A DNA stretch of 64,000 bases from Odiellus spinosus (taxonomy: Eukaryota > Arthropoda > Arachnida > Opiliones > Phalangiidae): contig CAWUCO010000205.1 in assembly GCA_963920705.1 (NCBI GenBank), positions 186,001-250,000 of the forward strand, written 5' to 3'. The position numbers and the translations under genes are program-made. Below, piece after piece: positions 2,281 to 49,955 of this stretch (the first letter of the stretch is position 1; the number at the start of each line of letters is the position of its first letter). The notes below the pieces were generated by a model, which saw only the letters and a program-made list of their open reading frames with translations, did no database searches and was not told the DNA's origin.

Positions 2281-2310
2281 AACGAAAAATTAGGTTATTT
2301 TAGCTAAAAA

Positions 2311-3158: not shown

Positions 3159-3300
3159 CGAAAAATTAGGTTATTTGGGCTTAAAACGAAAAATTAGGTT
3201 ATTTGGGCTTAAAACGAAAAATTTGGTTATTTGGGCTTAAAACAAAAAATTAGGTTATTTGGGTTTAAAACGAAAAATTAGGTTATTTGGGCTTAAAACG

Positions 3301-3390
3301 AAAAATTAGGTTATTTGGGCTTAAAACGAAAAATTAGGTTAAGCCCAAATAACCTAATTTTTCGTTTTAAGCCCAAATAACCTAATTTTT
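3301..3390. repeat. left orientation switch: inverted repeat with 40-bp arms
   Basis: Direct monomers run to 3340, ending ATTAGGTT. Reverse monomers start at 3341 with AAGCCCAAAT. Bases 3301-3340 and 3351-3390 are perfect inverted arms of 40 bp around a 10-bp centre (3341-3350). Beyond one mismatch the symmetry continues in degenerate form for roughly another 50 bp. TTA at 3339-3341 can be assigned to either side, a 3-bp microhomology. The perfect arms could form a cruciform or hairpin. Confidence 0.95.
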
Positions 3391-3420
3391 TGTTTTAAGC
3401 CCAAATAACATAATTTTTCG

Positions 3421-3547
3421 TTTTAAGCCAAAATCGCCTTATTTATTATTTTTAGCCCAGAAGACATATTTTTCATTTTTAGAAAAAATCACGTAATTTT
3501 TGGTTTCTAGACGAGAAAACGTAATATTCATTTTCAGCTAAATGTCG
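3421..3547 (-). repeat. first cassette of the inverted block (type B, 127 bp)
   Basis: The five units appear in reverse order: u5 3421-3448, u4 3449-3475, u3 3476-3503, u2 3504-3530 and a 17-nt u1 3531-3547. Type B hallmarks on the top strand are CGCCTTATTT, TAGAAAAAATCACG and AGCTAAATGTCG. The nearest cassette on the other side of the junction (3031-3158) shares the ACGTGATTTTTTCT and AATAAGGCG states, so related subtypes flank the switch. Confidence 0.92.
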
Positions 3548-3840
3548 TTTTTAGCTAAAATAACCTAATTTTTCGTTTTAAGCCCAAATAACCTAATTTT
3601 TCGTTTTAAAACCAAATAACCTAATTTTTCTTTTTAAGCCCAAATAACCTAATTTTTCGTTTTAAGCCCAAATAACCTAATTTTTCGTTTTAAGCCCAAA
3701 TAACCTCATTTTTCGTTTTAAGCCCAAATAACCTAATTTTTCGTTTTAAGCCCAAATAACCTAATTTTTCGTTTTAAGCCCAAATAACCTATTTTTCGTT
3801 TTAAGCCCAAATAACCTAATTTTTCGTTTTAAGCCCAAAT

Positions 3841-6800
3841 AACACAATTTTTCGTTTTAAGCCAAAATCGAATCATTGATTATTTTTAGCCCAGAAGACA
3901 TATTTTTCATTTTTAGCAAAAATCACTTAATTTTTGGTTTCTAGACGAGAAAACGTAATATTCATTTTCAGCCAAAATATCGTTTTTAGCTAAAATAACC
4001 TAATATTTCGTTTTAAGCCCAAATAACCTAATTTTTCGTTTTAAGCCCAAATAACCTAATTTTTCGTTTTAAGCCCAAATAACCTAATTTTTCGTTTTAA
4101 GCCAAAATCGCCTTATTTATTATTTTTAGCCCAGAAGACATATTTTTCATTTTTAGAAAAAATCACGTAATTTTTGGTTTCTAGACGAGAAAACGTAATA
4201 TTCATTTTCAGCCAAAATATCGTTTTTAGCTAAAATAACCTAATTTTTCGTTTTAAGCCCAAATAACATAATTTTTCGTTTTAAAACCAAATAACCTAAT
4301 TTTTCGTTTTAAGCCCAAATAACCTAATTTTTCGTTTTAAGCCCAAATAACCTAATTTTTCGTTTTAAGCCCAAATAACCTAATTTTTTGTTTTAAGCCC
4401 AAATAACATAATTTTTCGTTTTAAGCCCAAATAACCTAATTTTTCGTTTTAAGCCAAAATTGCCTCATTTATTATTTTTAGCCCAGAAGACATATTTTTC
4501 ATTTTTAGCAAAAATCACTTAATTTTTGGTTTCTAGACCATAAAACGTAATATTCATTTTCAGCCAAAATATCGTTTTTAGCTAAAATAACCTAATTTTT
4601 CGTTTTAAGCCCAAATAACCTAATTTTTCGTTTTAAAACCAAATAACCTAATTTTTCGTTTTAAGCCCAAATAACCTAATTTTTCGTTTTAAGCCCAAAT
4701 AACCTAATTTTTCGTTTTAAGCCCAAATAACCTAATTTTTCGTTTTAAGCCCAAATAACCTAATTTTTCGTTTTAAGCCCAAATAACCTAATTTTTCGTT
4801 TTAAGCCCAAATAACCTAATTTTTCGTTTTAAGCCCAAATAACCTAATTTTTCGTTTTAAGCCCAAATAACACAATTTTTCGTTTTAAGCCAAAATCGAA
4901 TCATTGATTATTTTTAGCCCAGAAGACATATTTTTCATTTTTAGCAAAAATCACTTAATTTTTGGTTTCTAGACGAGAAAACGTAATATTCATTTTCAGC
5001 CAAAATATCGTTTTTAGCTAAAATAACCTAATATTTCGTTTTAAGCCCAAATAACCTAATTTTTCGTTTTAAGCCCAAATAACCTAATTTTTCGTTTTAA
5101 GCCCAAATAACCTAATTTTTCGTTTTAAGCCAAAATCGCCTTATTTATTATTTTTAGCCCAGAAGACATATTTTTCATTTTTAGAAAAAATCACGTAATT
5201 TTTGGTTTCTAGACGAGAAAACGTAATATTCATTTTCAGCCAAAATATCGTTTTTAGCTAAAATAACCTAATTTTTCGTTTTAAGCCCAAATAACATAAT
5301 TTTTCGTTTTAAAACCAAATAACCTAATTTTTCGTTTTAAGCCCAAATAACCTAATTTTTCGTTTTAAGCCCAAATAACCTAATTTTTCGTTTTAAGCCC
5401 AAATAACCTAATTTTTTGTTTTAAGCCCAAATAACATAATTTTTCGTTTTAAGCCCAAATAACCTAATTTTTCGTTTTAAGCCAAAATTGCCTCATTTAT
5501 TATTTTTAGCCCAGAAGACATATTTTTCATTTTTAGCAAAAATCACTTAATTTTTGGTTTCTAGACCATAAAACGTAATATTCATTTTCAGCCAAAATAT
5601 CGTTTTTAGCTAAAATAACCTAATTTTTCGTTTTAAGCCCAAATAACCTAATTTTTCGTTTTAAAACCAAATAACCTAATTTTTCGTTTTAAGCCCAAAT
5701 AACCTAATTTTTCGTTTTAAGCCCAAATAACCTAATTTTTCGTTTTAAACCCAAATAACCTAATTTTTCGTTTTAAGCCCAAATAACCTAATTTTTCGTT
5801 TTAAGCCCAAATAACCTAATTTTTCGTTTTAAGCCCAAATAACCTAATTTTTCGTTTTAAGCCCAAATAACACAATTTTTCGTTTTAAGCCAAAATCGAA
5901 TCATTGATTATTTTTAGCCCAGAAGACATATTTTTCATTTTTAGCAAAAATCACTTAATTTTTGGTTTCTAGACGAGAAAACGTAATATTCATTTTCAGC
6001 CAAAATATCGTTTTTAGCTAAAATAACCTAATATTTCGTTTTAAGCCCAAATAACCTAATTTTTCGTTTTAAGCCCAAATAACCTAATTTTTCGTTTTAA
6101 GCCCAAATAACCTAATTTTTCGTTTTAAGCCAAAATCGCCTTATTTATTATTTTTAGCCCAGAAGACATATTTTTCATTTTTAGAAAAAATCACGTAATT
6201 TTTGGTTTCTAGACGAGAAAACGTAATATTCATTTTCAGCCAAAATATCGTTTTTAGCTAAAATAACCTAATTTTTCGTTTTAAGCCCAAATAACATAAT
6301 TTTTCGTTTTAAAACCAAATAACCTAATTTTTCGTTTTAAGCCCAAATAACCTAATTTTTCGTTTTAAGCCCAAATAACCTAATTTTTCGTTTTAAGCCC
6401 AAATAACCTAATTTTTCGTTTTAAGCCCAAATAACCAAATTTTTCGTTTTAAGCCCAAATAACATAATTTTTCGTTTTAAGCCAAAATCGCCTTATTTAT
6501 TATTTTTAGCCCAGAAGACATATTTTTCATTTTTAGAAAAAATCACGTAATTTTTGGTTTCTAGACGAGAAAACGTAATATTCATTTTCAGCTAAATGTC
6601 GTTTTTAGCTAAAATAACCTAATTTTTCGTTTTAAGCCCAAATAACATAATTTTTCGTTTTAAGCCCAAATAACCTAATTTTTCGTTTTAAGCCCAAATA
6701 ACCTAATTTTTCGTTTTAAGCCCAAATAACCTAATTTTTCGTTTTAAGCCCAAATAACCTAATTTTTCGTTTTAAGCCCAAATAACCTAATTTTTCGTTT

Positions 6801-6870
6801 TAAGCCCAAATAACCTAATTTTTCGTTTTAAGCCCAAATAACCTAATTTTTCGTTTTAAGCCCAAATAAC
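3841..6870 (-). repeat. three tandem copies of a 1.0-kb higher-order unit
   Basis: The marker AACACAATTTTTCG followed by a type A cassette starts at 3841, 4869 and 5869, giving periods of 1028 and 1000 bp that differ by one monomer. Each full copy runs through an A, a B and a third cassette. That third cassette carries the rare CTAGACCATAAAACG state at 4533 and 5561, 1028 bp apart. The third copy breaks off after its B cassette (6204). Confidence 0.88.
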
Positions 6871-9800
6871 CTAATATTTCGTTTTAAGCCCAAATAACCT
6901 AATTTTTCGTTTTAAGCCCAAATAACCAAATTTTTCGTTTTAAGCCAAAAAACCTAATTTTTCGTTTTAAGCCAAAATAACCTAATTTTTCGTTTTAAGC
7001 CCAAATAACCTAATTTTTCGTTTTAAGCCCGAATAACCTAATTTTTCGTTTTAAGCCCAAATAACCTAATTTTTCGTTTTAAGCCCAAATAACCTAATTT
7101 TTCGTTTTAAGCCCAAATTACCAAATTTTTCGTTTTAAGCCAAAATCGCCTCATTTATTATTTTTAGCCCAGAAGACATATTTTTCATTTTTAGCAAAAA
7201 TCACTTCATTTTTGGTTTCTAGATGAGAAAACGTAATATTCATTTTCAACCAAAATATCATTTTTAGCTAAAATAACCTAATTTTTAGTTTTAAGCCCAA
7301 ATAACCTAATTTTTCGTTTTAAGCCAAAAAACCTAATTTCGTTTTAAGCCAAAATAACCTAATTTTTCGTTTTAAGCCAAAATCGAATCATTGATTATTT
7401 TTAGCCCAGAAGACATATTTTTCATTTTTAGCAAAAATCACTTAATTTTTGGTTTCTAGACGAGAAAACGTAATATTCATTTTCAGCCAAAATATCGTTT
7501 TTAGCTAAAATAACCTAATTTTTCGTTTTAAGCCCAAATAACCTAATTTTTCGTTTTAAAACCAAATAACCTAATTTTTCGTTTTAAGCCAAAATCGCCT
7601 CATTTATTATTTTTAGCCCAGAAGACATATTTTTCATTTTTAGCAAAAATCACTTCATTTTTGGTTTCTAGATGAGAAAACGTAATATTCATTTTCAACC
7701 AAAATATTGTTTTTAGCTAAAATAACCTAATTTTTAGTTTTAAGCCCAAATAACCAAATTTTTCGTTTTAAGCCCAAATAATTTAATTTTTCGTTTTAAG
7801 CCAAAATCGCCTCATTTATTATTTTTAGCCCAGAAGACATATTTTTATTTTTAGCAAAAATCACTTAATTTTTGGTTTCTAGACGAGAAAACGTAATATT
7901 CATTTTCAGCCAAAATATCGTTTTTAGCTAAAATAACCTAATTTTTCGTTTTAAGCCCAAATAACCTAATTTTTCGTTTTAAAACCAAATAACCTAATTT
8001 TTCGTTTTAAGCCCAAATAACCTAATTTTTCGTTTTAAGCCCAAATAACCTAATTTTTCGTTTTAAGCCAAAAAACCTAATTTTTCGTTTTAAGCCCAAA
8101 TAACCTAATTTTTCGTTTTAAGCCCAAATAACCTAATTTTTCGTTTTAAGCCAAAATCGCCTTATTTATTATTTTTAGCCCAGAAGACATATTTTTCATT
8201 TTTAGAAAAAATCACGTAATTTTTGGTTTCTAGACGAGAAAACGTAATATTCATTTTCAGCCAAAATATCGTTTTTAGCTAAAATAACCTAATTTTTCGT
8301 TTTAAGCCCAAATAACATAATTTTTCGTTTTAAAACCAAATAACCTAATTTTTCGTTTTAAGCCCAAATAACCTAATTTTTCGTTTTAAGCCCAAATAAC
8401 CTAATTTTTCGTTTTAAGCCCAAATAACCTAATTTTTCGTTTTAAGCCCAAATAACCAAATTTTTCGTTTTAAGCCCAAATAACATAATTTTTCGTTTTA
8501 AGCCAAAATCGCCTTATTTATTATTTTTAGCCCAGAAGACATATTTTTCATTTTTAGAAAAAATCACGTAATTTTTGGTTTCTAGACGAGAAAACGTAAT
8601 ATTCATTTTCAGCTAAATGTCGTTTTTAGCTAAAATAACCTAATTTTTCGTTTTAAGCCCAAATAACATAATTTTTCGTTTTAAGCCCAAATAACCTAAT
8701 TTTTCGTTTTAAGCCCAAATAACCTAATTTTTCGTTTTAAGCCCAAATAACCTAATTTTTCGTTTTAAGCCCAAATAACCTAATTTTTCGTTTTAAGCCC
8801 AAATAACCTAATTTTTCGTTTTAAGCCCAAATAACCTAATTTTTCGTTTTAAGCCCAAATAACCTAATTTTTCGTTTTAAGCCCAAATAACCTAATATTT
8901 CGTTTTAAGCCCAAATAACCTAATTTTTCGTTTTAAGCCCAAATAACCAAATTTTTCGTTTTAAGCCAAAAAACCTAATTTTTCGTTTTAAGCCAAAATA
9001 ACCTAATTTTTCGTTTTAAGCCCAAATAACCTAATTTTTCGTTTTAAGCCCGAATAACCTAATTTTTCGTTTTAAGCCCAAATAACCTAATTTTTCGTTT
9101 TAAGCCCAAATAACCTAATTTTTCGTTTTAAGCCCAAATTACCAAATTTTTCGTTTTAAGCCAAAATCGCCTCATTTATTATTTTTAGCCCAGAAGACAT
9201 ATTTTTCATTTTTAGCAAAAATCACTTCATTTTTGGTTTCTAGATGAGAAAACGTAATATTCATTTTCAACCAAAATATCATTTTTAGCTAAAATAACCT
9301 AATTTTTAGTTTTAAGCCCAAATAACCTAATTTTTCGTTTTAAGCCAAAAAACCTAATTTCGTTTTAAGCCAAAATAACCTAATTTTTCGTTTTAAGCCA
9401 AAATCGAATCATTGATTATTTTTAGCCCAGAAGACATATTTTTCATTTTTAGCAAAAATCACTTAATTTTTGGTTTCTAGACGAGAAAACGTAATATTCA
9501 TTTTCAGCCAAAATATCGTTTTTAGCTAAAATAACCTAATTTTTCGTTTTAAGCCCAAATAACCTAATTTTTCGTTTTAAAACCAAATAACCTAATTTTT
9601 CGTTTTAAGCCAAAATCGCCTCATTTATTATTTTTAGCCCAGAAGACATATTTTTCATTTTTAGCAAAAATCACTTCATTTTTGGTTTCTAGATGAGAAA
9701 ACGTAATATTCATTTTCAACCAAAATATTGTTTTTAGCTAAAATAACCTAATTTTTAGTTTTAAGCCCAAATAACCAAATTTTTCGTTTTAAGCCCAAAT

Positions 9801-10117
9801 AATTTAATTTTTCGTTTTAAGCCAAAATCGCCTCATTTATTATTTTTAGCCCAGAAGACATATTTTTATTTTTAGCAAAAATCACTTAATTTTTGGTTTC
9901 TAGACGAGAAAACGTAATATTCATTTTCAGCCAAAATATCGTTTTTAGCTAAAATAACCTAATTTTTCGTTTTAAGCCCAAATAACCTAATTTTTCGTTT
10001 TAAAACCAAATAACCTAATTTTTCGTTTTAAGCCCAAATAACCTAATTTTTCGTTTTAAGCCCAAATAACCTAATTTTTCGTTTTAAGCCAAAAAACCTA
10101 ATTTTTCGTTTTAAGCC
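6076..10117 (-). repeat. 2021-bp tandem duplication
   Basis: Copy 1 is about 6076-8096 and copy 2 about 8097-10117. Marker pairs at an offset of 2021 bp: CCTTATTT at 6139/8160, GCCCGAATAA at 7027/9048, cassettes 6204/8224, 6556/8578, 7214/9236, 7451/9472, 7663/9684 and 7874/9896. The odd sites I compared (CTAATATTTCG, ACCAAATT, CTAGATGAG) match in both. The copies diverge near 8096/10117, where GCCCAAATAACC is replaced by GCCAAAATAACC. Confidence 0.9.
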
Positions 10118-13100
10118 AAAATAACCTAATTTTTCGTTTTAAGCCCAAATAACCTAATTTTTCGTTTTAAGCCAAAATCGCCTCATTTATTATTTTTAGC
10201 CCAGAAGACATATTTTTCATTTTTAGCAAAAATCACTTAATTTTTGGTTTCTAGACGAGAAAACGTAATATTCATTTTCAGCCAAAATATCGTTTTTAGC
10301 TAAAATAACCTAATTTTTCGTTTTAAGCCCAAATAACCTAATTTTTCGTTTTAAGCCAAAAAACCTAATTTTTCGTTTTAAGCCAAAATAACCTAATTTT
10401 TCGTTTTAAGCCAAAATCGAATCATTGATTATTTTTAGCCCAGAAGACATATTTTTCATTTTTAGCAAAAATCACTTAATTTTTGGTTTCTAGACGAGAA
10501 AACGTAATATTCATTTTCAGCCAAAATATCGTTTTTAGCTAAAATAACCTAATTTTTCGTTTTAAGCCCAAATAACCTAATTTTTCGTTTTAAAACCAAA
10601 TAACCTAATTTTTCGTTTTAAGCCCAAATAACCTAATTTTTCGTTTTAAGCCCAAATAACCTAATTTTTCGTTTTAAGCCAAAAAACCTAATTTTTCGTT
10701 TTAAGCCCAAATAACCTAATTTTTCGTTTTAAGCCCAAATAACACAATTTTTCGTTTTAAGCCAAAATCGAATCATTGATTATTTTTAGCCCAGAAGACA
10801 TATTTTTCATTTTTAGCAAAAATCACTTAATTTTTGGTTTCTAGACGAGAAAACGTAATATTCATTTTCAGCCAAAATATCGTTTTTAGCTAAAATAACC
10901 TAATATTTCGTTTTAAGCCCAAATAACCTAATTTTTCGTTTTAAGCCCAAATAACCTAATTTTTCGTTTTAAGCCCAAATAACCTAATTTTTCGTTTTAA
11001 GCCCAAATAACCTAATTTTTCGTTTTAAGCCCAAATAACATAATTTTTCGTTTTAAGCCAAAATCGCCTTATTTATTATTTTTTGCCCAGAAGACATATT
11101 TTTCATTTTTAGAAAAAATCACGTAATTTTTGGTTTCTAGACGAGAAAACGTAATATTCATTTTCAGCTAAATGTCGTTTTTAGCTAAAATAACCTAATT
11201 TTTCGTTTTAAGCCCAAATAACACAATTTTTCGTTTTAAGCCAAAATCGAATCATTGATTATTTTTAGCCCAGAAGACATATTTTTCATTTTTAGCAAAA
11301 ATCACTTAATTTTTGGTTTCTAGACGAGAAAACGTAATATTCATTTTCAGCCAAAATATCGTTTTTAGCTAAAATAACCTAATTTTTCGTTTTAAGCCCA
11401 AATAACCTAATTTTTCGTTTTAAGCCAAAAAACCTAATTTTTCGTTTTAAGCCAAAATAACCTAATTTTTCGTTTTAAGCCAAAATCGAATCATTGATTA
11501 TTTTTAGCCCAGAAGACATATTTTTCATTTTTAGCAAAAATCACTTAATTTTTGGTTTCTAGACGAGAAAACGTAATATTCATTTTCAGCCAAAATATAG
11601 TTTTTAGCTAAAATAACCTAATTTTTCGTTTTAAGCCCAAATAACCTAATTTTTCGTTTTAAAACCAAATAACCTAATTTTTCGTTTTAAAACCAAATAA
11701 CCTAATTTTTCGTTTTAAGCCCAAATAACCTAATTTTTCGTTTTAAGCCCAAATAACCTAATTTTTCGTTTTAAGCCAAAAAACCTAATTTTTCGTTTTA
11801 AGCCCAAATAACCTAATTTTTCGTTTTAAGCCCATATAACACAATTTTTCGTTTTAAGCCAAAATCGAATCATTGATTATTTTTAGCCCAGAAGACATAT
11901 TTTTCATTTTTAGCAAAAATCACTTAATTTTTGGTTTCTAGACGAGAAAACGTAATATTCATTTTCAGCCAAAATATCGTTTTTAGCTAAAATAACCTAA
12001 TATTTCGTTTTAAGCCCAAATAACCTAATTTTTCGTTTTAAGCCCAAATAACCTAATTTTTCGTTTTAAGCCCAAATAACCTAATTTTTCGTTTTAAGCC
12101 CAAATAACATAATTTTTCGTTTTAAGCCAAAATCGCCTTATTTATTATTTTTAGCCCAGAAGACATATTTTTCATTTTTAGAAAAAATCACGTAATTTTT
12201 GGTTTCTAGACGAGAAAACGTAATATTCATTTTCAGCTAAATGTCGTTTTTAGCTAAAATAACCTAATTTTTCGTTTTAAGCCCAAATAACATAATTTTT
12301 CGTTTTAAGCCCAAATAACATAATTTTTCGTTTTAAGCCCAAATAACCTAATTTTTCGTTTTAAGCCCAAATAACCTAATTTTTCGTTTTAAGCCCAAAT
12401 AACACAATTTTTCGTTTTAAGCCCAAATAACACAATTTTTCGTTTTAAGCCCAAATAACCTAATTTTTCGTTTTAAGCCCAAATAACACAATTTTTCGTT
12501 TTAAGCCCAAATAACACAATTTTTCGTTTTAAGCCCAAATAACACAATTTTTCGTTTTAAGCCAAAATCGAATCATTGATTATTTTTAGCCCAGAAGACA
12601 TATTTTTCATTTTTAGCAAAAATCACTTAATTTTTGGTTTCTAGACGAGAAAACGTAATATTCATTTTCAGCCAAAATATCGTTTTTAGCTAAAATAACT
12701 TAATTTTTCGTTTTAAGCCCAAATAACCTAATTTTTCGTTTTAAAACCAAATAACCTAATTTTTCGTTTTAAGCCCAAATAACCTAATTTTTCGTTTTAA
12801 GCCCAAATAACCTAATTTTTCGTTTTAAGCCCAAATAACCTAATTTTTCGTTTTAAGCCCAAATAACCTAATTTTTCGTTTTAAGCCCAAATAACCTAAT
12901 TTTTCGTTTTAAGCCCAAATAACACAATTTTTCGTTTTAAGCCCAAATAACACAATTTTTCGTTTTAAGCCAAAATCGAATCATTGATTATTTTTAGCCC
13001 AGAAGACATATTTTTCATTTTTAGCAAAAATCACTTAATTTTTGGTTTCTAGACGAGAAAACGTAATATTCATTTTCAGCCAAAATATCTTTTTAGCTAA

Positions 13101-13599
13101 AATAACCTAATATTTCGTTTTAAGCCCAAATAACCAAATTTTTCGTTTTAAGCCCAAATAACCTAATTTTTCGTTTTAAGCCCAAATAACCTAATTTTTC
13201 GTTTTAAGCCCAAATAACATAATTTTTCGTTTTAAGCCAAAATCGCCTTATTTATTATTTTTAGCCCAGAAGACATATTTTTCATTTTTAGAAAAAATCA
13301 CGTAATTTTTAGTTTCTAGACGAGAAAACGTAATATTCATTTTCAGCTAAATGTCGTTTTTAGCTAAAATAACCTAATTTTTCGTTTTAAGCCCAAATAA
13401 CATAATTTTTCGTTTTAAGCCCAAATAACCTAATTTTTCGTTTTAAGCCCAAATAACCTAATTTTTCGTTTTAAGCCCAAATAACCTAATTTTTCGTTTT
13501 CAGCCAAAATAACCTAATTTTTCGTTTTAAGCCCATATAACCTAATTTTTCGTTTTAAGCCAAAATAACCTAATTTTTCGTTTTAAGCCCAAATAACCT

Positions 13600-16000
13600 A
13601 ATTTTTCGTTTTAAACCAAAATAACCTAATTTTTCGTTTTAAGCCCAAATAACACAATTTTTCGTTTTAAGCCAAAATCGAATCATTGATTATTTTTAGC
13701 CCAGAAGACATATTTTTCATTTTTAGCAAAAATCACTTAATTTTTGGTTTCTAGACGAGAAAACGTAATATTCATTTTCAGCCAAAATATCGTTTTTAGC
13801 TAAAATAACCTAATATTTCGTTTTAAGCCCAAATAACCTAATTTTTCGTTTTAAGCCCAAATAACCTAATTTTTCGTTTTAAGCCCAAATAACCTAATTT
13901 TTCGTTTTAAGCCAAAATCGCCTTATTTATTATTTTTAGCCCAGAAGACATATTTTTCATTTTTAGAAAAAATCACGTAATTTTTGGTTTCTAGACGAGA
14001 AAACGTAATATTCATTTTCAGCCAAAATATCGTTTTTAGCTAAAATAACCTAATTTTTCGTTTTAAGCCCAAATAACATAATTTTTCGTTTTAAAACCAA
14101 ATAACCTAATTTTTCGTTTTAAGCCCAAATAACCTAATTTTTCGTTTTAAGCCCAAATAACCTAATTTTTCGTTTTAAGCCCAAATAACCTAATTTTTTG
14201 TTTTAAGCCCAAATAACATAATTTTTCGTTTTAAGCCCAAATAACCTAATTTTTCGTTTTAAGCCAAAATTGCCTCATTTATTATTTTTAGCCCAGAAGA
14301 CATATTTTTCATTTTTAGCAAAAATCACTTAATTTTTGGTTTCTAGACCATAAAACGTAATATTCATTTTCAGCCAAAATATCGTTTTTAGCTAAAATAA
14401 CCTAATTTTTCGTTTTAAGCCCAAATAACCTAATTTTTCGTTTTAAGCCAAAAAACCTAATTTTTCGTTTTAAGCCAAAATAACCTAATTTTTCGTTTTA
14501 AGCCAAAATCGAATCATTGATTATTTTTAGCCCAGAAGACATATTTTTCATTTTTAGCAAAAATCACTTAATTTTTGGTTTCTAGACGAGAAAACGTAAT
14601 ATTCATTTTCAGCCAAAATATTGTTTTTAGCTAAAATAACCTAATTTTTCGTTTTAAGCCCAAATAACCTAATTTTTCGTTTTAAAACCAAATAACCTAA
14701 TTTTTCGTTTTAAGCCAAAATCGCCTCATTTATTATTTTTAGCCCAGAAGACATATTTTTCATTTTTAGCAAAAATCACTTCATTTTTGGTTTCTAGATG
14801 AGAAAACGTAATATTCATTTTCAACCAAAATATCGTTTTTAGCTAAAATAACCTAATTTTTAGTTTTAAGCCCAAATAACCAAATTTTTCGTTTTAAGCC
14901 CAAATAATTTAATTTTTCGTTTTAAGCCAAAATCGCCTCATTTATTATTTTTAGCCCAGAAGACATATTTTTATTTTTAGCAAAAATCACTTAATTTTTG
15001 GTTTCTAGACGAGAAAACGTAATATTCATTTTCAGCCAAAATATCGTTTTTAGCTAAAATAACCTAATTTTTCGTTTTAAGCCCAAATAACCTAATTTTT
15101 CGTTTTAAAACCAAATAACCTAATTTTTCGTTTTAAGCCCAAATAACCTAATTTTTCGTTTTAAGCCCAAATAACCTAATTTTTCGTTTTAAGCCAAAAA
15201 ACCTAATTTTTCGTTTTAAGCCAAAATAACCTAATTTTTCGTTTTAAGCCCAAATAACCTAATTTTTCGTTTTAAGCCAAAATCGCCTCATTTATTATTT
15301 TTAGCCCAGAAGACATATTTTTCATTTTTAGCAAAAATCACTTAATTTTTGGTTTCTAGACGAGAAAACGTAATATTCATTTTCAGCCAAAATATCGTTT
15401 TTAGCTAAAATAACCTAATTTTTCGTTTTAAGCCAAAATAACCTAATTTTTCGTTTTAAGCCAAAAAACCTAATTTTTCGTTTTAAGCCAAAATAACCTA
15501 ATTTTTCGTTTTAAGCCAAAATCGAATCATTGATTATTTTTAGCCCAGAAGACATATTTTTCATTTTTAGCAAAAATCACTTAATTTTTGGTTTCTAGAC
15601 GAGAAAACGTAATATTCATTTTCAGCCAAAATATCGTTTTTAGCTAAAATAACCTAATTTTTCGTTTTAAGCCCAAATAACCTAATTTTTCGTTTTAAAA
15701 CCAAATAACCTAATTTTTCGTTTTAAGCCCAAATAACCTAATTTTTCGTTTTAAGCCCAAATAACCTAATTTTTCGTTTTAAGCCAAAAAACCTAATTTT
15801 TCGTTTTAAGCCCAAATAACCTAATTTTTCGTTTTAAGCCCAAATAACCTAATTTTTCGTTTTAAGCCCAAATAACCAAATTTTTCGTTTTAAGCCCAAA
15901 TAACCTAATTTTTCGTTTTAAGCCCAAATAACACAATTTTTCGTTTTAAGCCAAAATCGAATCATTGATTATTTTTAGCCCAGAAGACATATTTTTCATT
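13600..16000 (-). repeat. mosaic segment assembled from two upstream segments
   Basis: Cassettes 13746, 13986 and 14338 match 4964, 5204 and 5557 at an offset of about 8782 bp, including the rare CTAGACCATAAAACG state. Immediately after, cassettes 14577, 14789, 15000, 15351 and 15590 match 9472, 9684, 9896, 10246 and 10485 at an offset of about 5105 bp. The offset changes between about 14340 and 14580, so this is a chimera of two older modules. A similar switch occurs between 17489 (matches 5204) and 17868 (matches 9684). Confidence 0.82.
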
Positions 16001-19000: not shown

Positions 19001-19399
19001 ATCATTGATTATTTTTAGCCCAGAAGACATATTTTTCATTTTTAGCAAAAATCACTTAATTTTTGGTTTCTAGACGAGAAAACGTAATATTCATTTTCAG
19101 CCAAAATATCGTTTTTAGCTAAAATAACCTAATTTTTCGTTTTAAGCCCAAATAACCTAATTTTTCGTTTTAAAACCAAAAAACCTAATTTTTCGTTTTA
19201 AGCCCAAATAACCTAATTTTTCGTTTTAAGCCCAAATAACCTAATTTTTCGTTTGAAGCCAAAAAACCTAATTTTTCGTTTTAAGCCCAAATAACCTAAT
19301 TTTTCGTTTTAAGCCCAAATAACCTAATTTTTCGTTTTAAGCCCAAATAACCTAATTTTTCGTTTTAAGCCCAAATAACCTAATTTTTCGTTTTAAGCC

Positions 19400-38700: not shown

Positions 38701-41700
38701 TAATTTTTCGTTTTAAGCCCAAATAACCTAATTTTTCGTTTTAAGCCCAAATAACCTAATTTTTCGTTTTAAGCCCAAATAACCTAATTTTTCGTTTTAA
38801 GCCCAAATAACACAATTTTTCGTTTTAAGCCAAAATCGAATCATTGATTATTTTTAGCCCAGAAGACATATTTTTCATTTTTAGCAAAAATCACTTAATT
38901 TTTGGTTTCTAGACGAGAAAACGTAATATTCATTTTCAGCCAAAATATCGTTTTTAGCTAAAATAACCTAATATTTCGTTTTAAGCCCAAATAACCTAAT
39001 TTTTCGTTTTAAGCCCAAATAACCTAATTTTTCGTTTTAAGCCCAAATAACCTAATTTTTCGTTTTAAGCCCAAATAACCTAATTTTTCGTTTTAAGCCC
39101 AAATAACCTAATTTTTCGTTTTAAGCCCAAATAACCTAATTTTTCGTTTTAAGCCCAAATAACCTAATTTTTCGTTTTAAGCCCAAATAACACAATTTTT
39201 CGTTTTAAGCCAAAATCGAATCATTGATTATTTTTAGCCCAGAAGACATATTTTTCATTTTTAGCAAAAATCACTTAATTTTTGGTTTCTAGACGAGAAA
39301 ACGTAATATTCATTTCAGCCAAAATATCGTTTTTAGCTAAAATAACCTAATTATTCGTTTTAAGCCCAAATAACATAATTTTTCGTTTTAAGCCCAAATA
39401 ACCTAATTTTTCGTTTTAAGCCCAAATAACCTAATTTTTCGTTTTAAGCCCAAATAACCTAATTTTTCGTTTTAAGCCCAAATAACCTAATTTTTCGTTT
39501 TAAGCCCAAATAACCTAATTTTTCGTTTTAAGCCCAAATAACACAATTTTTCGTTTTAAGCCAAAATCGAATCATTGATAATTTTTGGCCCAGAAGACAT
39601 ATTTTTCATTTTTAGCAAAAATCACTTAATTTTTGGTTTCTAGACGAGAAAACGTAATATTCATTTTCAGCCAAAATATCGTTTTTAGCTAAAATAACCT
39701 AATTTTTCGTTTTAAGCCCAAATAACCTAATTTTTCGTTTTAAGCCCAAATAACCTAATTTTTCGTTTTAAGCCCAAATAACATAATTTTTCGTTTTAAG
39801 CCAAAATCGCCTTATTTATTATTTTTAGCCCAGAAGACATATTTTTCATTTTTAGAAAACATCACGTAATTTTTGGTTTCTAGACGAGAAAACGTAATAT
39901 TCATTTTCAGCTAAATGTCGTTTTAAGCCAAAATAACCTAATTTTTCGTTTTAAGCCCAAATAACCTAATTTTTCGTTTTAAGCCCAAATAACATAATTT
40001 TTCGTTTTAAGCCAAAATCGACTTATTTATTATTTTTAGCCCAGAAGACATATTTTTCATTTTCAGAAAAAATCTCGTAATTTTTGGTTTCTAGACGAGA
40101 AAACGTAATATTCATTTTCAGCTAAATGTCGTTTTTAGCTAAAATAACCTAATTTTTCGTTTTAAGCCCAAATAACCTAATTTTTCGTTTTAAGCCCAAA
40201 TAACACAATTTTTCGTTTTAAGCCAAAATCGAATCATTGATTATTTTTAGCCCAGAAGACATATTTTTCATTTTTAGCAAAAATCACTTAATTTTTGGTT
40301 TCTAGACGAGAAAACGTAATATTCATTTCAGCCAAAATATCGTTTTTAGCTAAAATAACCTAATTATTCGTTTTAAGCCCAAATAACATAATTTTTCGTT
40401 TTAAGCCCAAATAACCTAATTTTTCGTTTTAAGCCCAAATAACCTAATTTTTCGTTTTAAGCCCAAATAACCTAATTTTTCGTTTTAAGCCCAAATAACC
40501 TAATTTTTCGTTTTAAGCCCAAATAACCTAATTTTTCGTTTTAAGCCCAAATAACACAATTTTTCGTTTTAAGCCAAAATCGAATCATTGATTATTTTTG
40601 GCCCAGAAGACATATTTTTCATTTTTAGCAAAAATCACTTAATTTTTGGTTTCTAGACGAGAAAACGTAATATTCATTTTCAGCCAAAATATCGTTTTTA
40701 GCTAAAATAACCTAATTTTTCGTTTTAAGCCCAAATAACCTAATTTTTCGTTTTAAGCCCAAATAACCTAATTTTTCGTTTTAAGCCCAAATAACATAAT
40801 TTTTCGTTTTAAGCCAAAATCGCCTTATTTATTATTTTTAGCCCAGAAGACATATTTTTCATTTTTAGAAAACATCACGTAATTTTTGGTTTCTAGACGA
40901 GAAAACGTAATATTCATTTTCAGCTAAATGTCGTTTTAAGCCAAAATAACCTAATTTTTCGTTTTAAGCCCAAATAACCTAATTTTTCGTTTTAAGCCCA
41001 AATAACATAATTTTTCGTTTTAAGCCAAAATCGACTTATTTATTATTTTTAGCCCAGAAGACATATTTTTCATTTTCAGAAAAAATCTCGTAATTTTTGG
41101 TTTCTAGACGAGAAAACGTAATATTCATTTTCAGCTAAATGTCGTTTTTAGCTAAAATAACCTAATTTTTCGTTTTAAGCCCAAATAACCTAATTTTTCG
41201 TTTTAAGCCCAAATAACACAATTTTTCGTTTTAAGCCAAAATCGAATCATTGATTATTTTTAGCCCAGAAGACATATTTTTCATTTTTAGCAAAAATCAC
41301 TTAATTTTTGGTTTCTAGACGAGAAAACGTAATATTCATTTTCAGCCAAAATATCGTTTTTAGCTAAAATAACCTAATTTTTCGTTTTAAGCCCAAATAA
41401 CCTAATTTTTCGTTTTAAGCCCAAATAACCTAATTTTTCGTTTTAAGACCAAATAACCTAATTTTTCGTTTTAAGCCCAAATAACCTAATTTTTCGTTTT
41501 AAGCCCAAATAGCCTAATTTTTCGTTTTAAGCCCAAATAACCTAATTTTTCGTTTTAAGCCCAAATAACCTAATTTTTCGTTTTAAGCCCAAATAACACA
41601 ATTTTTCGTTTTAAGCCAAAATCGAATCATTGATTATTTTTAGCCCAGAAGACATATTTTTCATTTTTAGCAAAAATCACTTAATTTTTGGTTTCTAGAC

Positions 41701-42680
41701 GAGAAAACGTAATATTCATTTTCAGCCAAAATATCGTTTTTAGCTAAAATAACCTAATATTTCGTTTTAAGCCCAAATAACCTAATTTTTCGTTTTAAGC
41801 CCAAATAACCTAATTTTTCGTTTTAAGCCCAAATAACCTAATTTTTCGTTTTAAGCCCAAATAACCTAATTTTTCGTTTTAAGCCCAAATAACACAATTT
41901 TTCGTTTTAAGCCCAAATAACCTAATTTTTCGTTTTAAGCCCAAATAACACAATTTTTCGTTTTAAGCCAAAATCGAATCATTGATTATTTTTAGCCCAG
42001 AAGACATATTTTTCATTTTTAGCAAAAATCACTTAATTTTTGGTTTCTAGACGAGAAAACGTAATATTCATTTCAGCCAAAATATCGTTTTTAGCTAAAA
42101 TAACCTAATTATTCGTTTTAAGCCCAAATAACATAATTTTTCGTTTTAATTCCAAATAACCTAATTTTTCGTTTTAAGCCCAAATAACCTAATTTTTCGT
42201 TTTAAGCCCAAATAACCTAATTTTTCGTTTTAAGCCCAAATAACCTAATTTTTCGTTTTAAGCCCAAATAACACAATTTTTCGTTTTAAGCCAAAATCGA
42301 ATCATTGATTATTTTTAGCCCAGAAGACATATTTTTCATTTTTAGCAAAAATCACTTAATTTTTGGTTTCTAGATGAGAAAACGTAATATTCATTTTCAG
42401 CCAAAATATCGTTTTTAGCTAAAATAACCTAATATTTCGTTTTAAGCCCAAATAACCTAATTTTTCGTTTTAAGCCCAAATAACCTAATTTTTCGTTTTA
42501 AGCCCAAATAACCTAATTTTTCGTTTTAAGCCCAAATAACCTAATTTTTCGTTTTAAGCCCAAATAACCTAATTTTTCGTTTTAAGCCCAAATAACATAA
42601 TTTTTCGTTTTAAGCCAAAATCGCCTTATTTATTATTTTTAGCCCAGAAGACATATTTTTCATTTTTAGAAAACATCACG
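35800..42680 (-). repeat. 3461-bp tandem duplication with internal 1013-bp repeat
   Basis: Eleven consecutive cassettes from 36174 to 39284-equivalents recur at +3461. Private markers confirm it: TCATTGATAATTTTTGG at 36111/39572, ATAGCCTAA (GCCTAA at 38051/41512) and CGTTTTAATTCC at 38681/42142. Inside each copy a four-cassette group (A-B-D-A) repeats at 1013 bp: 36174/37188, 36414/37428, 36625/37639 and 36837/37849. The ATATTCATTTCAGCC one-base-deleted state at 35850/36863 obeys the same period. Confidence 0.9.
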
Positions 42681-44470
42681 TAATTTTTGGTTTCTAGACG
42701 AGAAAACGTAATATTCATTTTCAGCTAAATGTCGTTTTAAGCCAAAATAACCTAATTTTTCGTTTTAAGCCCAAATAACCTAATTTTTCGTTTTAAGCCC
42801 AAATAACATAATTTTTCGTTTTAAGCCAAAATCGACTTATTTATTATTTTTAGCCCAGAAGACATATTTTTCATTTTCAGAAAAAATCTCGTAATTTTTG
42901 GTTTCTAGACGAGAAAACGTAATATTCATTTTCAGCTAAATGTCGTTTTTAGCTAAAATAACCTAATTTTTCGTTTTAAGCCCAAATAACCTAATTTTTC
43001 GTTTTAAGCCCAAATAACACAATTTTTCGTTTTAAGCCAAAATCGAATCATTGATTATTTTTAGCCCAGAAGACATATTTTTCATTTTTAGCAAAAATCA
43101 CTTAATTTTTGGTTTCTAGACGAGAAAACGTAATATTCATTTTCAGCCAAAATATCGTTTTTAGCTAAAATAACCTAATTTTTCGTTTTAAGCCCAAATA
43201 ACCTAATTTTTCGTTTTAAGCCCAAATAACCTAATTTTTCGTTTTAAGACCAAATAACCTAATTTTTCGTTTTAAGCCCAAATAACCTAATTTTTCGTTT
43301 TAAGCCCAAATAGCCTAATTTTTCGTTTTAAGCCCAAATAACCTAATTTTTCGTTTTAAGCCCAAATAACCTAATTTTTCGTTTTAAGCCCAAATAACAC
43401 AATTTTTCGTTTTAAGCCAAAATCGAATCATTGATTATTTTTAGCCCAGAAGACATATTTTTCATTTTTAGCAAAAATCACTTAATTTTTGGTTTCTAGA
43501 CGAGAAAACGTAATATTCATTTTCAGCCAAAATATCGTTTTTAGCTAAAATAACCTAATATTTCGTTTTAAGCCCAAATAACCTAATTTTTCGTTTTAAG
43601 CCCAAATAACCTAATTTTTCGTTTTAAGCCCAAATAACCTAATTTTTCGTTTTAAGCCCAAATAACCTAATTTTTCGTTTTAAGCCCAAATAACACAATT
43701 TTTCGTTTTAAGCCCAAATAACCTAATTTTTCGTTTTAAGCCCAAATAACACAATTTTTCGTTTTAAGCCAAAATCGAATCATTGATTATTTTTAGCCCA
43801 GAAGACATATTTTTCATTTTTAGCAAAAATCACTTAATTTTTGGTTTCTAGACGAGAAAACGTAATATTCATTTCAGCCAAAATATCGTTTTTAGCTAAA
43901 ATAACCTAATTATTCGTTTTAAGCCCAAATAACATAATTTTTCGTTTTAATTCCAAATAACCTAATTTTTCGTTTTAAGCCCAAATAACCTAATTTTTCG
44001 TTTTAAGCCCAAATAACCTAATTTTTCGTTTTAAGCCCAAATAACCTAATTTTTCGTTTTAAGCCCAAATAACACAATTTTTCGTTTTAAGCCAAAATCG
44101 AATCATTGATTATTTTTAGCCCAGAAGACATATTTTTCATTTTTAGCAAAAATCACTTAATTTTTGGTTTCTAGACGAGAAAACGTAATATTCATTTTCA
44201 GCCAAAATATCGTTTTTAGCTAAAATAACCTAATATTTCGTTTTAAGCCCAAATAACCTAATTTTTCGTTTTAAGCCCAAATAACCTAATTTTTCGTTTT
44301 AAGCCCAAATAACCTAATTTTTCGTTTTAAGCCCAAATAACCTAATTTTTCGTTTTAAGCCCAAATAACATAATTTTTCGTTATAAGCCAAAATCGCCTT
44401 ATTTATTATTTTTAGCCCAGAAGACATATTTTTCATTTTTAGAAAACATCACGTAATTTTTGGTTTCTAG
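40880..44470 (-). repeat. 1801-bp tandem duplication
   Basis: Cassettes 40889, 41099, 41310, 41690, 42042 and 42365 recur at 42689, 42900, 43111, 43491, 43843 and 44166. GCCTAA at 41512/43313 and CGTTTTAATTCC at 42142/43943 give exactly 1801 bp. The following pair 42689/44462 is 1773 bp apart, one monomer less. The duplication lies on top of the second copy of the 3461-bp repeat, so it is the younger event. Confidence 0.88.
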
Positions 44471-46799
44471 ACGAGAAAACGTAATATTCATTTTCAGCTA
44501 AATGTCGTTTTAAGCCAAAATAACCTAATTTTTCGTTTTAAGCCCAAATAACCTAATTTTTCGTTTTAAGCCCAAATAACATAATTTTTCGTTTTAAGCC
44601 AAAATCGACTTATTTATTATTTTTAGCCCAGAAGACATATTTTTCATTTTCAGAAAAAATCTCGTAATTTTTGGTTTCTAGACGAGAAAACGTAATATTC
44701 ATTTTCAGCTAAATGTCGTTTTTAGCTAAAATAACCTAATTTTTCGTTTTAAGCCCAAATAACCTAATTTTTCGTTTTAAGCCCAAATAACCTAATTTTT
44801 CGTTTTAAGCCCAAATAACCTAATTTTTCGTTTTAAGCCCAAATAACCTAATATTTCGTTTTAAGCCCAAATAACCTAATTTTTCGTTTTAAGCCAAAAT
44901 CGCCTCATTTATTATTTTTAGCCCAGAAGACATATTTTTCATTTTTAGCAAAAATCACTTAATTTTTGGTTTCTAGACGAGAAAACGTAACATTCATTTT
45001 CAGCCAAAATATCGTTTTTAGCTAAAATAACCTAATTATTCGTTTTAAGCCCAAATAACATAATTTTTCGTTTTCAGCCAAAATAACCTAATTTTTCGTT
45101 TTAAGCCCATATAACCTAATTTTTCGTTTTAAGCCCAAATAACCTAATTTTTCGTTTTAAGCCCAAATGACCTAATTTTTCGTTTTAAGCCCAAATAACC
45201 TAATTTTTCGTTTTAAGCCAAAATAACCTAATTTTTCGTTTTAAGCCCAAATAACCTAATTTTTCGTTTTAAGCCCAAATAACATAATTTTTCGTTTTAA
45301 GCCAAAATCGACTTATTTATTATTTTTAGCCCAGAAGACATATTTTTCATTTTCAGAAAAAATCACGTAATTTTTGGTTTCTAAACGAGAAAACGTAATA
45401 TTCATTTTCAGCTAAATGTCGTTTTTAGCTAAAATAACCTAATTTTTCGTTTTAAGCCCAAATAACCAAATTTTTCGTTTTAAGCCCAAATAACCTAATT
45501 TTTCGTTTTAAGCCCAAATAACCTAATTTTTCGTTTTAAGCCCAAATAACCTAATTTTTCGTTTTAAGCCAAAATCGCCTCATTTATTATTTTTAGCCCA
45601 GAAGACATATTTTTCATTTTTAGCAAAAATCACTTAATTTTTGGTTTCTAGACGAGAAAACGTAACATTCATTTTCAGCCAAAATATCGTTTTTAGCTAA
45701 AATAACCTAATTTTTCGTTTTAAGCCCAAATAACCTAATTTTTCGTTTTAAGCCCAAATAACCTAATTTTTCGTTTTAAGCCCAAATAACCTAATTTTTC
45801 GTTTTAAGCCCATATAACCTAATTTTTCGTTTTAAGCCAAAATAACCTAATTTTTCGTTTTAAGCCCAAATAACCTAATTTTTCGTTTTAAGCCCAAATA
45901 ACATAATTTTTCGTTTTAAGCCAAAATCGACTTATTTATTATTTTTAGCCCAGAAGACATATTTTTCATTTTCAGAAAAAATCACGTAATTTTTGGTTTC
46001 TAAACGAGAAAACGTAATATTCATTTTCAGCTAAATGTCGTTTTTAGCTAAAATAACCTAATTTTTCGTTTTAAGCCCAAATAACCTAATTTTTCGTTTT
46101 AAGCCCAAATAACCTAATTTTTCGTTTTAAGCCCAAATAACCTAATTTTTCGTTTTAAGCCCAAATAACCTAATTTTTCGTTTTAAGCCCAAATAACCTA
46201 ATTTTTCGTTTTAAGCCAAAATCGCCTCATTTATTATTTTTAGCCCAGAAGACATATTTTTCATTTTTAGCAAAAATCACTTAATTTTTGGTTTCTAGAC
46301 GAGAAAACGTAACATTCATTTTCAGCCAAAATATCGTTTTTAGCTAAAATAACCTAATTTTTCGTTTTAAGCCCAAATAACCTAATTTTTCGTTTTAAGC
46401 CCAAATAACCTAATTTTTCGTTTTAAGCCCAAATAACCTAATTTTTCGTTTTAAGCCCAAATAACCTAATTTTTCGTTTTAAGCCCAAATAACCTAATTT
46501 TTCGTTTTAAGCCCAAATAACCTAATTTTTCGTTTTAAGCCCAAATAACCTAATTTTTCGTTTTAAGCCCAAATAACCTAATTTTTCGTTTTAAGCCCAA
46601 ATAACCCAATTTTTCGTTTTAAGCCAAAATTGCCTCATTTATTATTTTTAGCCCAGAAGACATATTTTTCATTTTTAGCAAAAATCACTTAATTTTTTGT
46701 TTCTAGACCAGAAAACGTAATATTAATTTTCAGGCAAAATGTCGTATTTACCCAAATAACCTAATTTTTCGTTTTAAGCCCAAATAACCTAATTTTTCG

Positions 46800-49480
46800 T
46801 TTTAAGCCAAAATTGCCTCATTTATTATTTTTAGCCCAGAAGACATATTTTTCATTTTTAGCAAAAATCACTTAATTTTTGGTTTCTAGACGAGAAAACG
46901 TAATAATCATTTTCAGCCAAAATATCGTTTTTAGCTAAAATAACCTAATTTTTCGTTTTAAGCCCAAATAACCTAATTTTTCGTTTTAAGCCCAAATAAC
47001 CTAATTTTTCGTTTTAAGCCCAAATAACCTAATTTTTCGTTTTAAGCCCAAATAACCTAATTTTTCGTTTTAAGCCCAAATAACCTAATTTTTCGTTTTA
47101 AGCCCAAATAACCTAATTTTTCGTTTTAAGCCCAAATAACATAATTTTTCGTTTTAAGCCAAAATCGACTTATTTATTATTTTTAGCCCAGAAGACATAT
47201 TTTTCATTTTCAGAAAAAATCACGTAATTTTTGGTTTCTAGACGAGAAAACGTAATATTCATTTTCAGCTAAATGTCGTTTTTAGCTAAAATAGCCTAAT
47301 TTTTCGTTTTAAGCCCAAATAACCTAATTTTTCGTTTTAAGCCCAAATAACCTAATTTTTCGTTTTAAGCCCAAATAACCTAATTTTTCGTTTTAAGCCA
47401 AAATCGCCTCATTTATTATTTTTAGCCCAGAAGACATATTTTTCATTTTTAGCAAAAATCACTTAATTTTTGGTTTCTAGACGAGAAAACGTAACATTCA
47501 TTTTCAGCCAAAATATCGTTTTTAGCTAAAATAACCTAATTTTTCGTTTTAAGCCCAAATAACCTAATTTTTCGTTTTAAGCCAAAATCGCCTCATTGAT
47601 TATTTTTAGCCCAGAAGACATATTTTTCATTTTTAGCAAAAATCACTTAATTTTTGGTTTCTAGACGAGAAAACGTAATATTCATTTTCAGCCAAAATAT
47701 CGTTTTTAGCTAAAATAACCTAATTTTTCGTTTTAAGCCCAAATAACCTAATTTTTCGTTTTAAGCCCAAATAACATAATTTTTCGTTTTAAGCCAAAAT
47801 CGACTTATTTATTATTTTTAGCCCAGAAGACATATTTTTCATTTTCAGAAAAAATCACGTAATTTTTGGTTTCTAAACGAGAAAACGTAATATTCATTTT
47901 CAGCTAAATGTCGTTTTTAGCTAAAATAACCTAATTTTTCGTTTTAAGCCCAAATAACCTAATTTTTCGTTTTAAGCCCAAATAACCTAATTTTTCGTTT
48001 TAAGCCCAAATAACCTAATTTTTCGTTTTAAGCCCAAATAACCTAATTTTTCGTTTTAAGCCAAAATCGCCTCATTTATTATTTTTAGCCCAGAAGACAT
48101 ATTTTTCATTTTTAGCAAAAATCACTTAATTTTTGGTTTCTAGACGAGAAAACGTAACATTCATTTTCAGCCAAAATATCGTTTTTAGCTAAAATAACCT
48201 AATTTTTCGTTTTAAGCCCAAATAACCTAATTTTTCGTTTTAAGCCCAAATAACCTAATTTTTCGTTTTAAGCCCAAATAACCTAATTTTTCGTTTTAAG
48301 CCCAAATAACCTAATTTTTCGTTTTAAGCCCAAATAACCTAATTTTTCGTTTTAAGCCCAAATAACCTAATTTTTCGTTTTAAGCCCAAATAACCTAATT
48401 TTTCGTTTTAAGCCAAAATAACCTAATTTTTCGTTTTAAGCCCAAATAACCTAATTTTTCGTTTTAAGCCAAAATTGCCTCATTTATTATTTTTAGCCCA
48501 GAAGACATATTTTTCATTTTTAGCAAAAATCACTTAATTTTTGGTTTCTAGACGAGAAAACGTAATAATCATTTTCAGCCAAAATATCGTTTTTAGCTAA
48601 AATAACCTAATTTTTCGTTTTAAGCCCAAATAACCTAATTTTTCGTTTTAAGCCCAAATAACCTAATTTTTCGTTTTAAGCCCAAATAACCTAATTTTTC
48701 GTTTTAAGCCCAAATAACCTAATTTTTCGTTTTAAGCCCAAATAACCTAATTTTTCGTTTTAAGCCCAAATAACCTAATTTTTCGTTTTAAGCCCAAATA
48801 ACATAATTTTTCGTTTTAAGCCAAAATCGACTTATTTATTATTTTTAGCCCAGAAGACATATTTTTCATTTTCAGAAAAAATCACGTAATTTTTGGTTTC
48901 TAGACGAGAAAACGTAATATTCATTTTCAGCTAAATGTCGTTTTTAGCTAAAATAGCCTAATTTTTCGTTTTAAGCCCAAATAACCTAATTTTTCGTTTT
49001 AAGCCCAAATAACCTAATTTTTCGTTTTAAGCCCAAATAACCTAATTTTTCGTTTTAAGCCAAAATCGCCTCATTTATTATTTTTAGCCCAGAAGACATA
49101 TTTTTCATTTTTAGCAAAAATCACTTAATTTTTGGTTTCTAGACGAGAAAACGTAACATTCATTTTCAGCCAAAATATCGTTTTTAGCTAAAATAACCTA
49201 ATTTTTCGTTTTAAGCCCAAATAACCTAATTTTTCGTTTTAAGCCAAAATCGCCTCATTGATTATTTTTAGCCCAGAAGACATATTTTTCATTTTTAGCA
49301 AAAATCACTTAATTTTTGGTTTCTAGACGAGAAAACGTAATATTCATTTTCAGCCAAAATATCGTTTTTAGCTAAAATAACCTAATTTTTCGTTTTAAGC
49401 CCAAATAACCTAATTTTTCGTTTTAAGCCCAAATAACCTAATTTTTCGTTTTAAGCCCAAATAACCTAATTTTTCGTTTT
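46800..49480 (-). repeat. 1662-bp tandem duplication
   Basis: AATTGCCTCA at 46811/48473, TAATAATCATTTTC at 46901/48563 and AAAATAGCC near 47288/48950 are 1662 bp apart. Cassettes 46881, 47233, 47472 and 47656 pair with 48543, 48895, 49134 and 49319. Copy 2 ends a few hundred bases before the right orientation switch. Confidence 0.88.
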
Positions 49481-49901
49481 AAGCCCAAATAACCTAATTT
49501 TTCGTTTTAAGCCAAAATAACCTAATTTTTCGTTTTAAGCCCAAATAACCTAATTTTTCGTTTTAAGCCCAAATAACATAATTTTTCGTTTTAAGCCAAA
49601 ATCGCCTTATTTATTATTTTTAGCCCAGAAGACATATTTTTCATTTTTAGAAAAAATCACTTAATTTTTGGTTTCTAGACGAGAAAACGTAATATTCATT
49701 TTCAGCTAAATGTCGTTTTTAGCTAAAATAACTTAATTTTTCGTTTTAAGCCCAAATAACCTAATTTTTCGTTTTAAGCCCAAATAACCTAATTTTTCGT
49801 TTTAAGCCCAAATAACCTAATTTTTCGTTTTAAGCCCAAATAACCTAATTTTTCGTTTTAAGCCCAAATAACCTAATTTTTCGTTTTAAGCCAAAATAAC
49901 C

Positions 49902-49955
49902 TAATTTTTCGTTTTAAGCCCAAATAACCTAATTTGGGCTTAAAACGAAAAATTA
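49902..49955. repeat. right orientation switch: inverted repeat with 24-bp arms
   Basis: Reverse monomers end inside a unit and direct monomers restart at once. Bases 49902-49925 and 49932-49955 are inverted arms of 24 bp around the six-base centre AACCTA (49926-49931). The right arm loses symmetry at 49956 because the next element is a truncated cassette rather than a plain monomer. As at the left junction, no foreign sequence or target-site duplication is visible. Confidence 0.94.

What the first reader, a model, noticed from the sequence alone, without database searches (positions are those of the whole stretch)
3341..49931. 46.6-kb inverted domain inside an otherwise direct satellite array
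The array is direct, then reverse, then direct, with two exact switch points and no other orientation change seen. The inverted domain has its own cassette subtypes (type D; CTTCATTT; CCAGACGAG; AAAACATC), none of which I saw in either flank. It has therefore evolved apart from its neighbours. Inverted blocks are known in centromeric satellites of other eukaryotes; here the whole domain is delimited.
Basis: partly seen in the sequence, partly recalled or inferred. Interest (0 to 1): 0.72.

Follow-up and report, generated by a model that had tools for sequence, protein, structure and literature searches.

The report
Reversed block in a satellite array
A 46.6-kb stretch of a simple repeated DNA sequence runs backwards relative to the same repeat on both sides and carries variants of its own; reversed blocks are already known in satellite DNA, so this is a clear but fairly ordinary example.

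Summary
The window is one AT-rich satellite: a 28-bp monomer (A) in runs, interrupted by a fixed 127-128-bp cassette. Bases 1-3340 read forward, 3341-49931 reverse, 49932-64000 forward. Both switches are sharp, with 3 and 4 bp of microhomology.

'Evolved apart' is partly right. None of 185 exact repeat pairs of 300 bp or more crosses a switch, though this says nothing about switch 1, since the left flank has no such pairs. The flanks share long A-runs (6 of 44 against 0 of 149) and fewer cassettes.

Best reading: a reversed block joined by microhomology-type repair, whose orientation then limited exchange with its neighbours. Flip and reversed insertion cannot be separated; a misjoin is not excluded. 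Organism and centromere role are unknown. Reversed satellite blocks are reported in primates, Tribolium and Chionographis, so this is a new member of a known kind.

The parts
1..3340 (+). Left flank: 83 A units (some partial), 8 bCDEF cassettes, including a run of 32 A monomers
3339..3341 (.). Switch 1 (forward to reverse), 3-bp microhomology TTA; foot of a predicted hairpin with a stem of about 60 bp and an 8-nt loop
3341..49931 (-). Reversed block: 992 A units (some partial), 148 of 148 cassettes complete and in the same unit order
3341..20000 (-). Sub-part 1 of the block (limits approximate, set by me; 2044-bp exact pair at 6053/8074)
20001..35500 (-). Sub-part 2 (limits approximate; exact 2473-bp pair at 24701/27177; a 2265-bp pair 19382/22784 reaches over its left limit)
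35501..45000 (-). Sub-part 3 (limits approximate; exact 1914-bp pair at 37000/40461)
45001..49931 (-). Sub-part 4 (limits approximate; 1022-bp exact pair at 46754/48416)
49932..49935 (.). Switch 2 (reverse to forward), 4-bp microhomology ATTT; predicted hairpin with a stem of about 24 bp and a 6-nt loop
49932..64000 (+). Right flank: 357 A units (some partial), 31 full cassettes, 3 truncated EF cassettes, A-runs up to 40

Best explanation
A block of a 28-bp satellite array lies in reverse orientation between two stretches of the same array. It was joined at both ends by microhomology-type end joining or template switching (inferred), not by fold-back duplication of the adjacent sequence (tested, not seen). 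Unequal exchange and tandem duplication work between copies in the same orientation (established recombination logic, recalled), so the block has since amplified mainly on its own, by local duplications of about 1-3.4 kb, and the right flank likewise (pattern shown; cause inferred). Whether it was flipped in place or inserted reversed is not settled; I lean slightly to insertion.
For: Clean switches. 185 of 185 exact repeat pairs of 300 bp or more lie within one part: 170 block-block, 15 right-right, 0 inverted. With 300-bp direct pairs of any spacing, the points spanned by none are 1-3945, 49447-50238 and the last 0.7 kb; the 1-kb sample points from 4 to 49 kb are spanned by 3 to 66. Nearest cassette is in the same part only for 8 of 8 left, 145 of 148 block and 25 of 31 right cassettes, the other 3 and 6 being block/right ties. 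Flanks share features that the block lacks: A-runs of 20 or more in 6 of 44 against 0 of 149, Fisher p=1.1e-4 with runs treated as independent (5 of the 6 are in the right flank); 2.40 and 2.20 cassettes per kb against 2.91-3.55 in 14-kb pieces of the block; the monomer variant with CGTAAAATT 3 times left, 9 right, 0 of 992 in the block. Microhomology of 3 and 4 bp: 76 of 784 phase pairs have 3 or more, so both by chance is about 0.009 (my product). Removing 3341-49931 leaves the 28-bp phase unbroken (offset 0), whereas re-flipping the block leaves offsets of 22 and 18. No mirror order of A-runs at either switch.
Against: The left flank has no exact pair of 200 bp or more even within itself, so the barrier test is empty at switch 1 and rests on switch 2. 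Median best 500-bp identity is 95.2-96.0% from block sub-parts to right-flank parts and 95.6-98.9% between sub-parts of the block: some sub-parts are no closer to each other than to the right flank. Shared 40-mers overlap likewise: 35-95% between block pieces, 26-45% between block and right. Local uncrossed points (pairs within 6 kb) also occur inside the block and right flank, and with 3-kb windows switch 2 is only the 63rd lowest of 581 points. 99 inverted block-right exact matches of 200-299 bp exist, longest 279. Of 52 multi-copy unit variants, 15 are shared between parts, 7 of them by block and right alone. For insertion the phase argument is weak: allowing for microhomology ambiguity an unbroken phase has a chance of about 8 in 28 (my arithmetic), and 242 of 253 random in-phase left-right joins match the window at least as well as the real one. 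Left-right k-mer affinity is marginal: 0 of 66 overlapping block pieces reach it at k=20 and 28, 1 of 66 at k=40, 31 of 66 at k=60.
Confidence: 0.55

Rival explanations
1. Assembly misjoin: pieces of satellite from other places were joined in the wrong orientation.
For: The switches fall in A-runs, which I take to be hard to assemble; switch 2 coincides with a lineage boundary, as a chimera would also give. No reads were available.
Against: Two joins would be needed, and the flanks share features. A fold-back read artefact would give a mirror image, which is not seen.
Confidence: 0.15
2. The array is a mosaic of many alternating blocks, as reported for Tribolium madens and Chionographis japonica, and this block is one of them. 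(Not exclusive of the best explanation.)
For: Left flank seen for only 3.3 kb; symmetries of a few to several tens of kb are reported in Tribolium (passages of PMC13081366) and mixed forward and reverse arrays for Chio (passages of PMC10264360).
Against: Only two switches in 64 kb, and their junction sequences differ from each other, whereas Tribolium inversion sites are conserved types. The wider contig could not be searched: ten tries did not complete.
Confidence: 0.4
3. Simple two-break inversion in place of a formerly continuous direct array. (A route to the best explanation, not exclusive of it.)
For: Fewest events; cassette types I and II occur in both the block and the right flank.
Against: Re-flipping leaves 28-bp phase offsets of 22 and 18 at the ends, though small losses or duplications at the breaks would explain them.
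Confidence: 0.3
4. Inverted duplication by fold-back of the adjacent array.
For: Each switch sits in a predicted hairpin: z = -19.7 at switch 1 and -8.7 at switch 2.
Against: A strand switch in this repeat gives such a hairpin by itself. A-run order outward from switch 1 is 7,4,5,3,32 (left) against 4,11,4,8,11 (block), and from switch 2 8,8,2,4,8 (block) against 2,7,13,4,4 (right).
Confidence: 0.05

Closest known systems
Inversions in primate alpha-satellite arrays (PMC11062924, passages seen)
   Same: A block of a tandem satellite in reverse orientation within an array
   Different: The one sized in the passages is 3.2 Mb, at a known centromere, and such inversions were checked there with ultra-long reads; here 46.6 kb, a 28-bp repeat, unknown locus, no reads
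Macro-dyad symmetries of TmSat1/TmSat2 in Tribolium madens (PMC13081366, passages seen)
   Same: Reversed subarrays of several kb within one satellite, symmetries up to tens of kb
   Different: There the inversion sites are conserved sequence types found thousands of times and arrays tend to symmetry; here two different junctions, seen once each
Chio1/Chio2 arrays of Chionographis japonica (PMC10264360, passages seen)
   Same: 28-bp monomer (Chio2), a higher-order repeat cluster, forward and reverse arrays mixed
   Different: Chio has a dominant 23-bp form and dyad symmetries in the monomer; this satellite shows neither. The Chio letters are in a figure that is not held, so sequence identity could not be tested

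Membership tests
Reversed block within a satellite array (general kind) | Same repeat family on both strands with discrete switch points | tested here: met
Reversed block within a satellite array (general kind) | Switches confirmed on single molecules | not testable with these tools
   no reads available
Centromeric satellite | Bound by CENH3/CENP-A or located at the primary constriction | not testable with these tools
   organism unknown; the genome search did not complete in ten tries
Tribolium-type macro-dyad symmetry | Direct and inverted subarrays tending to equal length | tested here: inconclusive
   block 46.6 kb; right flank at least 14 kb and left at least 3.3 kb, both cut by the window
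Tribolium-type macro-dyad symmetry | Conserved inversion-site sequence | tested here: not met
   the two switches differ in sequence and microhomology; only two sites were available
Chio1/2 satellite | Dominant 23-bp variant beside the 28-bp monomer | tested here: not met
   1396 of 1432 A units are 28 bp, one is 23 bp
Chio1/2 satellite | 8-bp dyad symmetry giving hairpins between monomers | tested here: not met
   longest self-complementary word in the consensus A monomer pair is 4 bp
Chio1/2 satellite | Consensus sequence of the monomer | not testable with these tools
   letters are in a figure, which is not held

The most novel reading that the evidence does not exclude
Orientation itself sets the limit of a homogenisation unit: a satellite array is divided by strand switches into blocks that amplify independently, so switch positions predict lineage boundaries. 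This window, with no exact repeat of 300 bp or more across switch 2 and 3 to 66 across each 1-kb sample point of the block, would be a compact natural test.
Probability: 0.25. Interest if true: 0.5.

Novelty: new member of a known kind. Interest (0 to 1): 0.35.

Why it matters
If the switches are real, they allow a direct test of whether strand orientation limits concerted evolution in satellites, because the same repeat can be compared within and across switch points. On its own the block is one more case of an arrangement already reported in primates, beetles and a plant.

Tried and rejected
Looking for the organism: exact patterns gave 0 matches in viral contigs (33 bases; 20 bases; a 28-base cassette pattern) and in genome contigs (28 bases; 20 bases). 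blastn of window 3000-3700 gave none in phages or plasmids. These tools warn that records of the window's own genome may be left out. Rfam at gathering threshold gave 0 (12), ARAGORN 0 (13), ORFs of 80 aa or more 0 (8). Eleven 16-base words of the repeat gave 0 papers, which covers only papers that print the letters in running text.

Fold-back inverted duplication was rejected because the order of A-runs does not mirror at either switch. The hairpins at the switches follow from the strand switch itself; two control pieces folded worse than 199 and 200 of 200 shuffles. The left-right join test did not support a formerly continuous left-right array.

Literature: listings with the start of abstracts and passages of three papers; no paper was read whole. 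I make no claim that this block or satellite is absent from print beyond.

I added results that I had left out (and the empty left-flank test) and for them lowered the best explanation from 0.60 to 0.55 and the novel case from 0.30 to 0.25.

Full report
What is there. The 64-kb window is one satellite. A dynamic-programming parse with consensus units taken from the window divides it into a 28-bp monomer A (GCTTAAAACGAAAAATTAGGTTATTTGG) in runs, interrupted by a cassette of five related but diverged units b-C-D-E-F (consensus 18+28+27+27+28 bp; observed 127 or 128). There are 1432 A units (some partial) and 187 complete cassettes: 8 left, 148 in the block, 31 right; three further cassettes in the right flank are truncated to EF. 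In the block 148 of 148 cassettes keep the same unit order. There is no ORF of 80 aa or more, no tRNA and no Rfam match at gathering threshold.

The observation. Orientation is forward in 1-3340, reverse in 3341-49931 and forward in 49932-64000. No wrong-strand 12-mer of the consensus monomer was found in any of the three, about 5-20 bases at each switch being left out; TRF gives the same limits. At switch 1 forward sequence can be read to 3341 and reverse from 3339 (TTA shared); at switch 2 reverse can be read to 49935 and forward from 49932 (ATTT shared). Of 784 phase pairs of the consensus monomer and its complement, 76 offer 3 bp or more of such overlap and 20 offer 4, so two switches with 3 and 4 bp are modest evidence for microhomology-type joining (about 0.009 for both at 3 or more, my product; there are only two switches).

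Is the block a separate lineage? For: exact repeat pairs of 300 bp or more number 185, of which 170 are within the block, 15 within the right flank, and none crosses a switch in either orientation. Counting direct pairs of any spacing, the 1-kb sample points from 4 to 49 kb are spanned by 3 to 66 pairs and switch 2 by none; the only points spanned by none are 1-3945, 49447-50238 and the last 0.7 kb. The left flank holds no exact pair of 200 bp or more even within itself, so this test says nothing about switch 1. The nearest cassette lies in the same part only for 8 of 8 left, 145 of 148 block and 25 of 31 right cassettes; the rest are block/right ties. One of 53 distinct cassette sequences is shared between parts (block 3, right 4). 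The flanks share long A-runs (20 or more monomers: 6 of 44, one of them left and five right, against 0 of 149 in the block; p = 1.1e-4 treating runs as independent) and lower cassette density (2.40 and 2.20 per kb against 2.91-3.55 in 14-kb pieces of the block; 2 of 173 overlapping 3.34-kb pieces of the block are as low as the left flank), and a monomer variant (CGTAAAATT) present 3 and 9 times in the flanks and 0 of 992 times in the block.

Against, or limiting. The block is not uniform: it holds about four sub-parts with their own recent amplifications, such as a 2473-bp exact copy 2476 bp away. Continuity minima as low as or close to those at the switches occur without a strand change at about 35.6, 44.9, 53.9 and 60.2 kb. 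With 3-kb windows switch 1 ranks 5th lowest and switch 2 63rd lowest of 581 points; with 5-kb windows switch 2 ranks 9th of 541, and the lowest points lie around it. Median best 500-bp identity is 95.2-96.0% from block sub-parts to right-flank parts, and 95.6-98.9% between different sub-parts of the block, so the ranges overlap; shared 40-mers overlap likewise (26-45% block to right, 35-95% within the block). Of 52 multi-copy unit variants 26 are block-only, 11 right-only and 15 shared between parts; those with copies within 10 kb on both sides number 7 at switch 1 and 10 at switch 2, against a minimum of 12 between 13.3 and 39.9 kb, a small difference. Left cassettes are the most divergent (means 8.7 to right and 9.1 to block, 9.4 among themselves, against 6.6 between block and right). 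At k=60 the left flank shares no more with the right flank than with equal-sized pieces of the block (31 of 66 do as well). There are 99 inverted block-right exact matches of 200-299 bp, the longest 279 bp.

How it arose. A fold-back duplication would leave a mirror image; A-run order shows none at either switch. Removing the block leaves the monomer phase intact (offset 0), while flipping it back leaves offsets of 22 and 18 bp. That leans to insertion of a reversed block, but with the microhomology ambiguity an intact phase has about 8 chances in 28 (my arithmetic), and 242 of 253 random in-phase left-right joins match the window at least as well as the real join. I therefore leave flip and insertion open. 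The hairpins at the switches (z -19.7 and -8.7; two control pieces z above +2) follow from the strand switch itself.

Why it differs from the flanks. Tandem duplication and unequal sister exchange work between copies in the same orientation (recalled, not tested here). A strand switch would hinder them, and the absence of long shared repeats across switch 2 fits. It fits as well with a block, or a misassembled piece, that came from elsewhere.

Known relatives. Inversions in primate alpha-satellite arrays (PMC11062924, passages), reversed subarrays forming symmetries of up to tens of kb in Tribolium madens (PMC13081366, passages), and mixed forward and reverse arrays of 23- and 28-bp monomers in Chionographis japonica (PMC10264360, passages) show the same kind of arrangement. 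This satellite lacks the 23-bp form and the dyad symmetry reported for Chio, and its two switch points are not alike as the conserved Tribolium sites are. It is a new member of a known kind. A centromeric role is possible but untested.

Noticed in passing
49932-50020, about 51161-51250, and a third place further on in the right flank: Three truncated cassettes (EF only); in the first two an A monomer runs straight into the second half of unit D. Found only in the right flank: 3 of 34 cassettes there, 0 of 156 elsewhere.
   Followed up: partly
1-64000: The cassette is a chain of diverged 28-bp-like units, nearly always complete and in fixed order, set between A-runs of very variable length (2-40).
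   Followed up: partly
24701-29649 and 37000-44369: Very recent large duplications: exact copies of 2473 bp (spacing 2476) and of 1914 and 1864 bp.
   Followed up: no
10281-10411 and 56281-56411: Two sampled pieces away from the switches fold less well than dinucleotide shuffles (z about +2.3), and the consensus monomer has no self-complementary word over 4 bp: the repeat lacks short dyad symmetry.
   Followed up: partly
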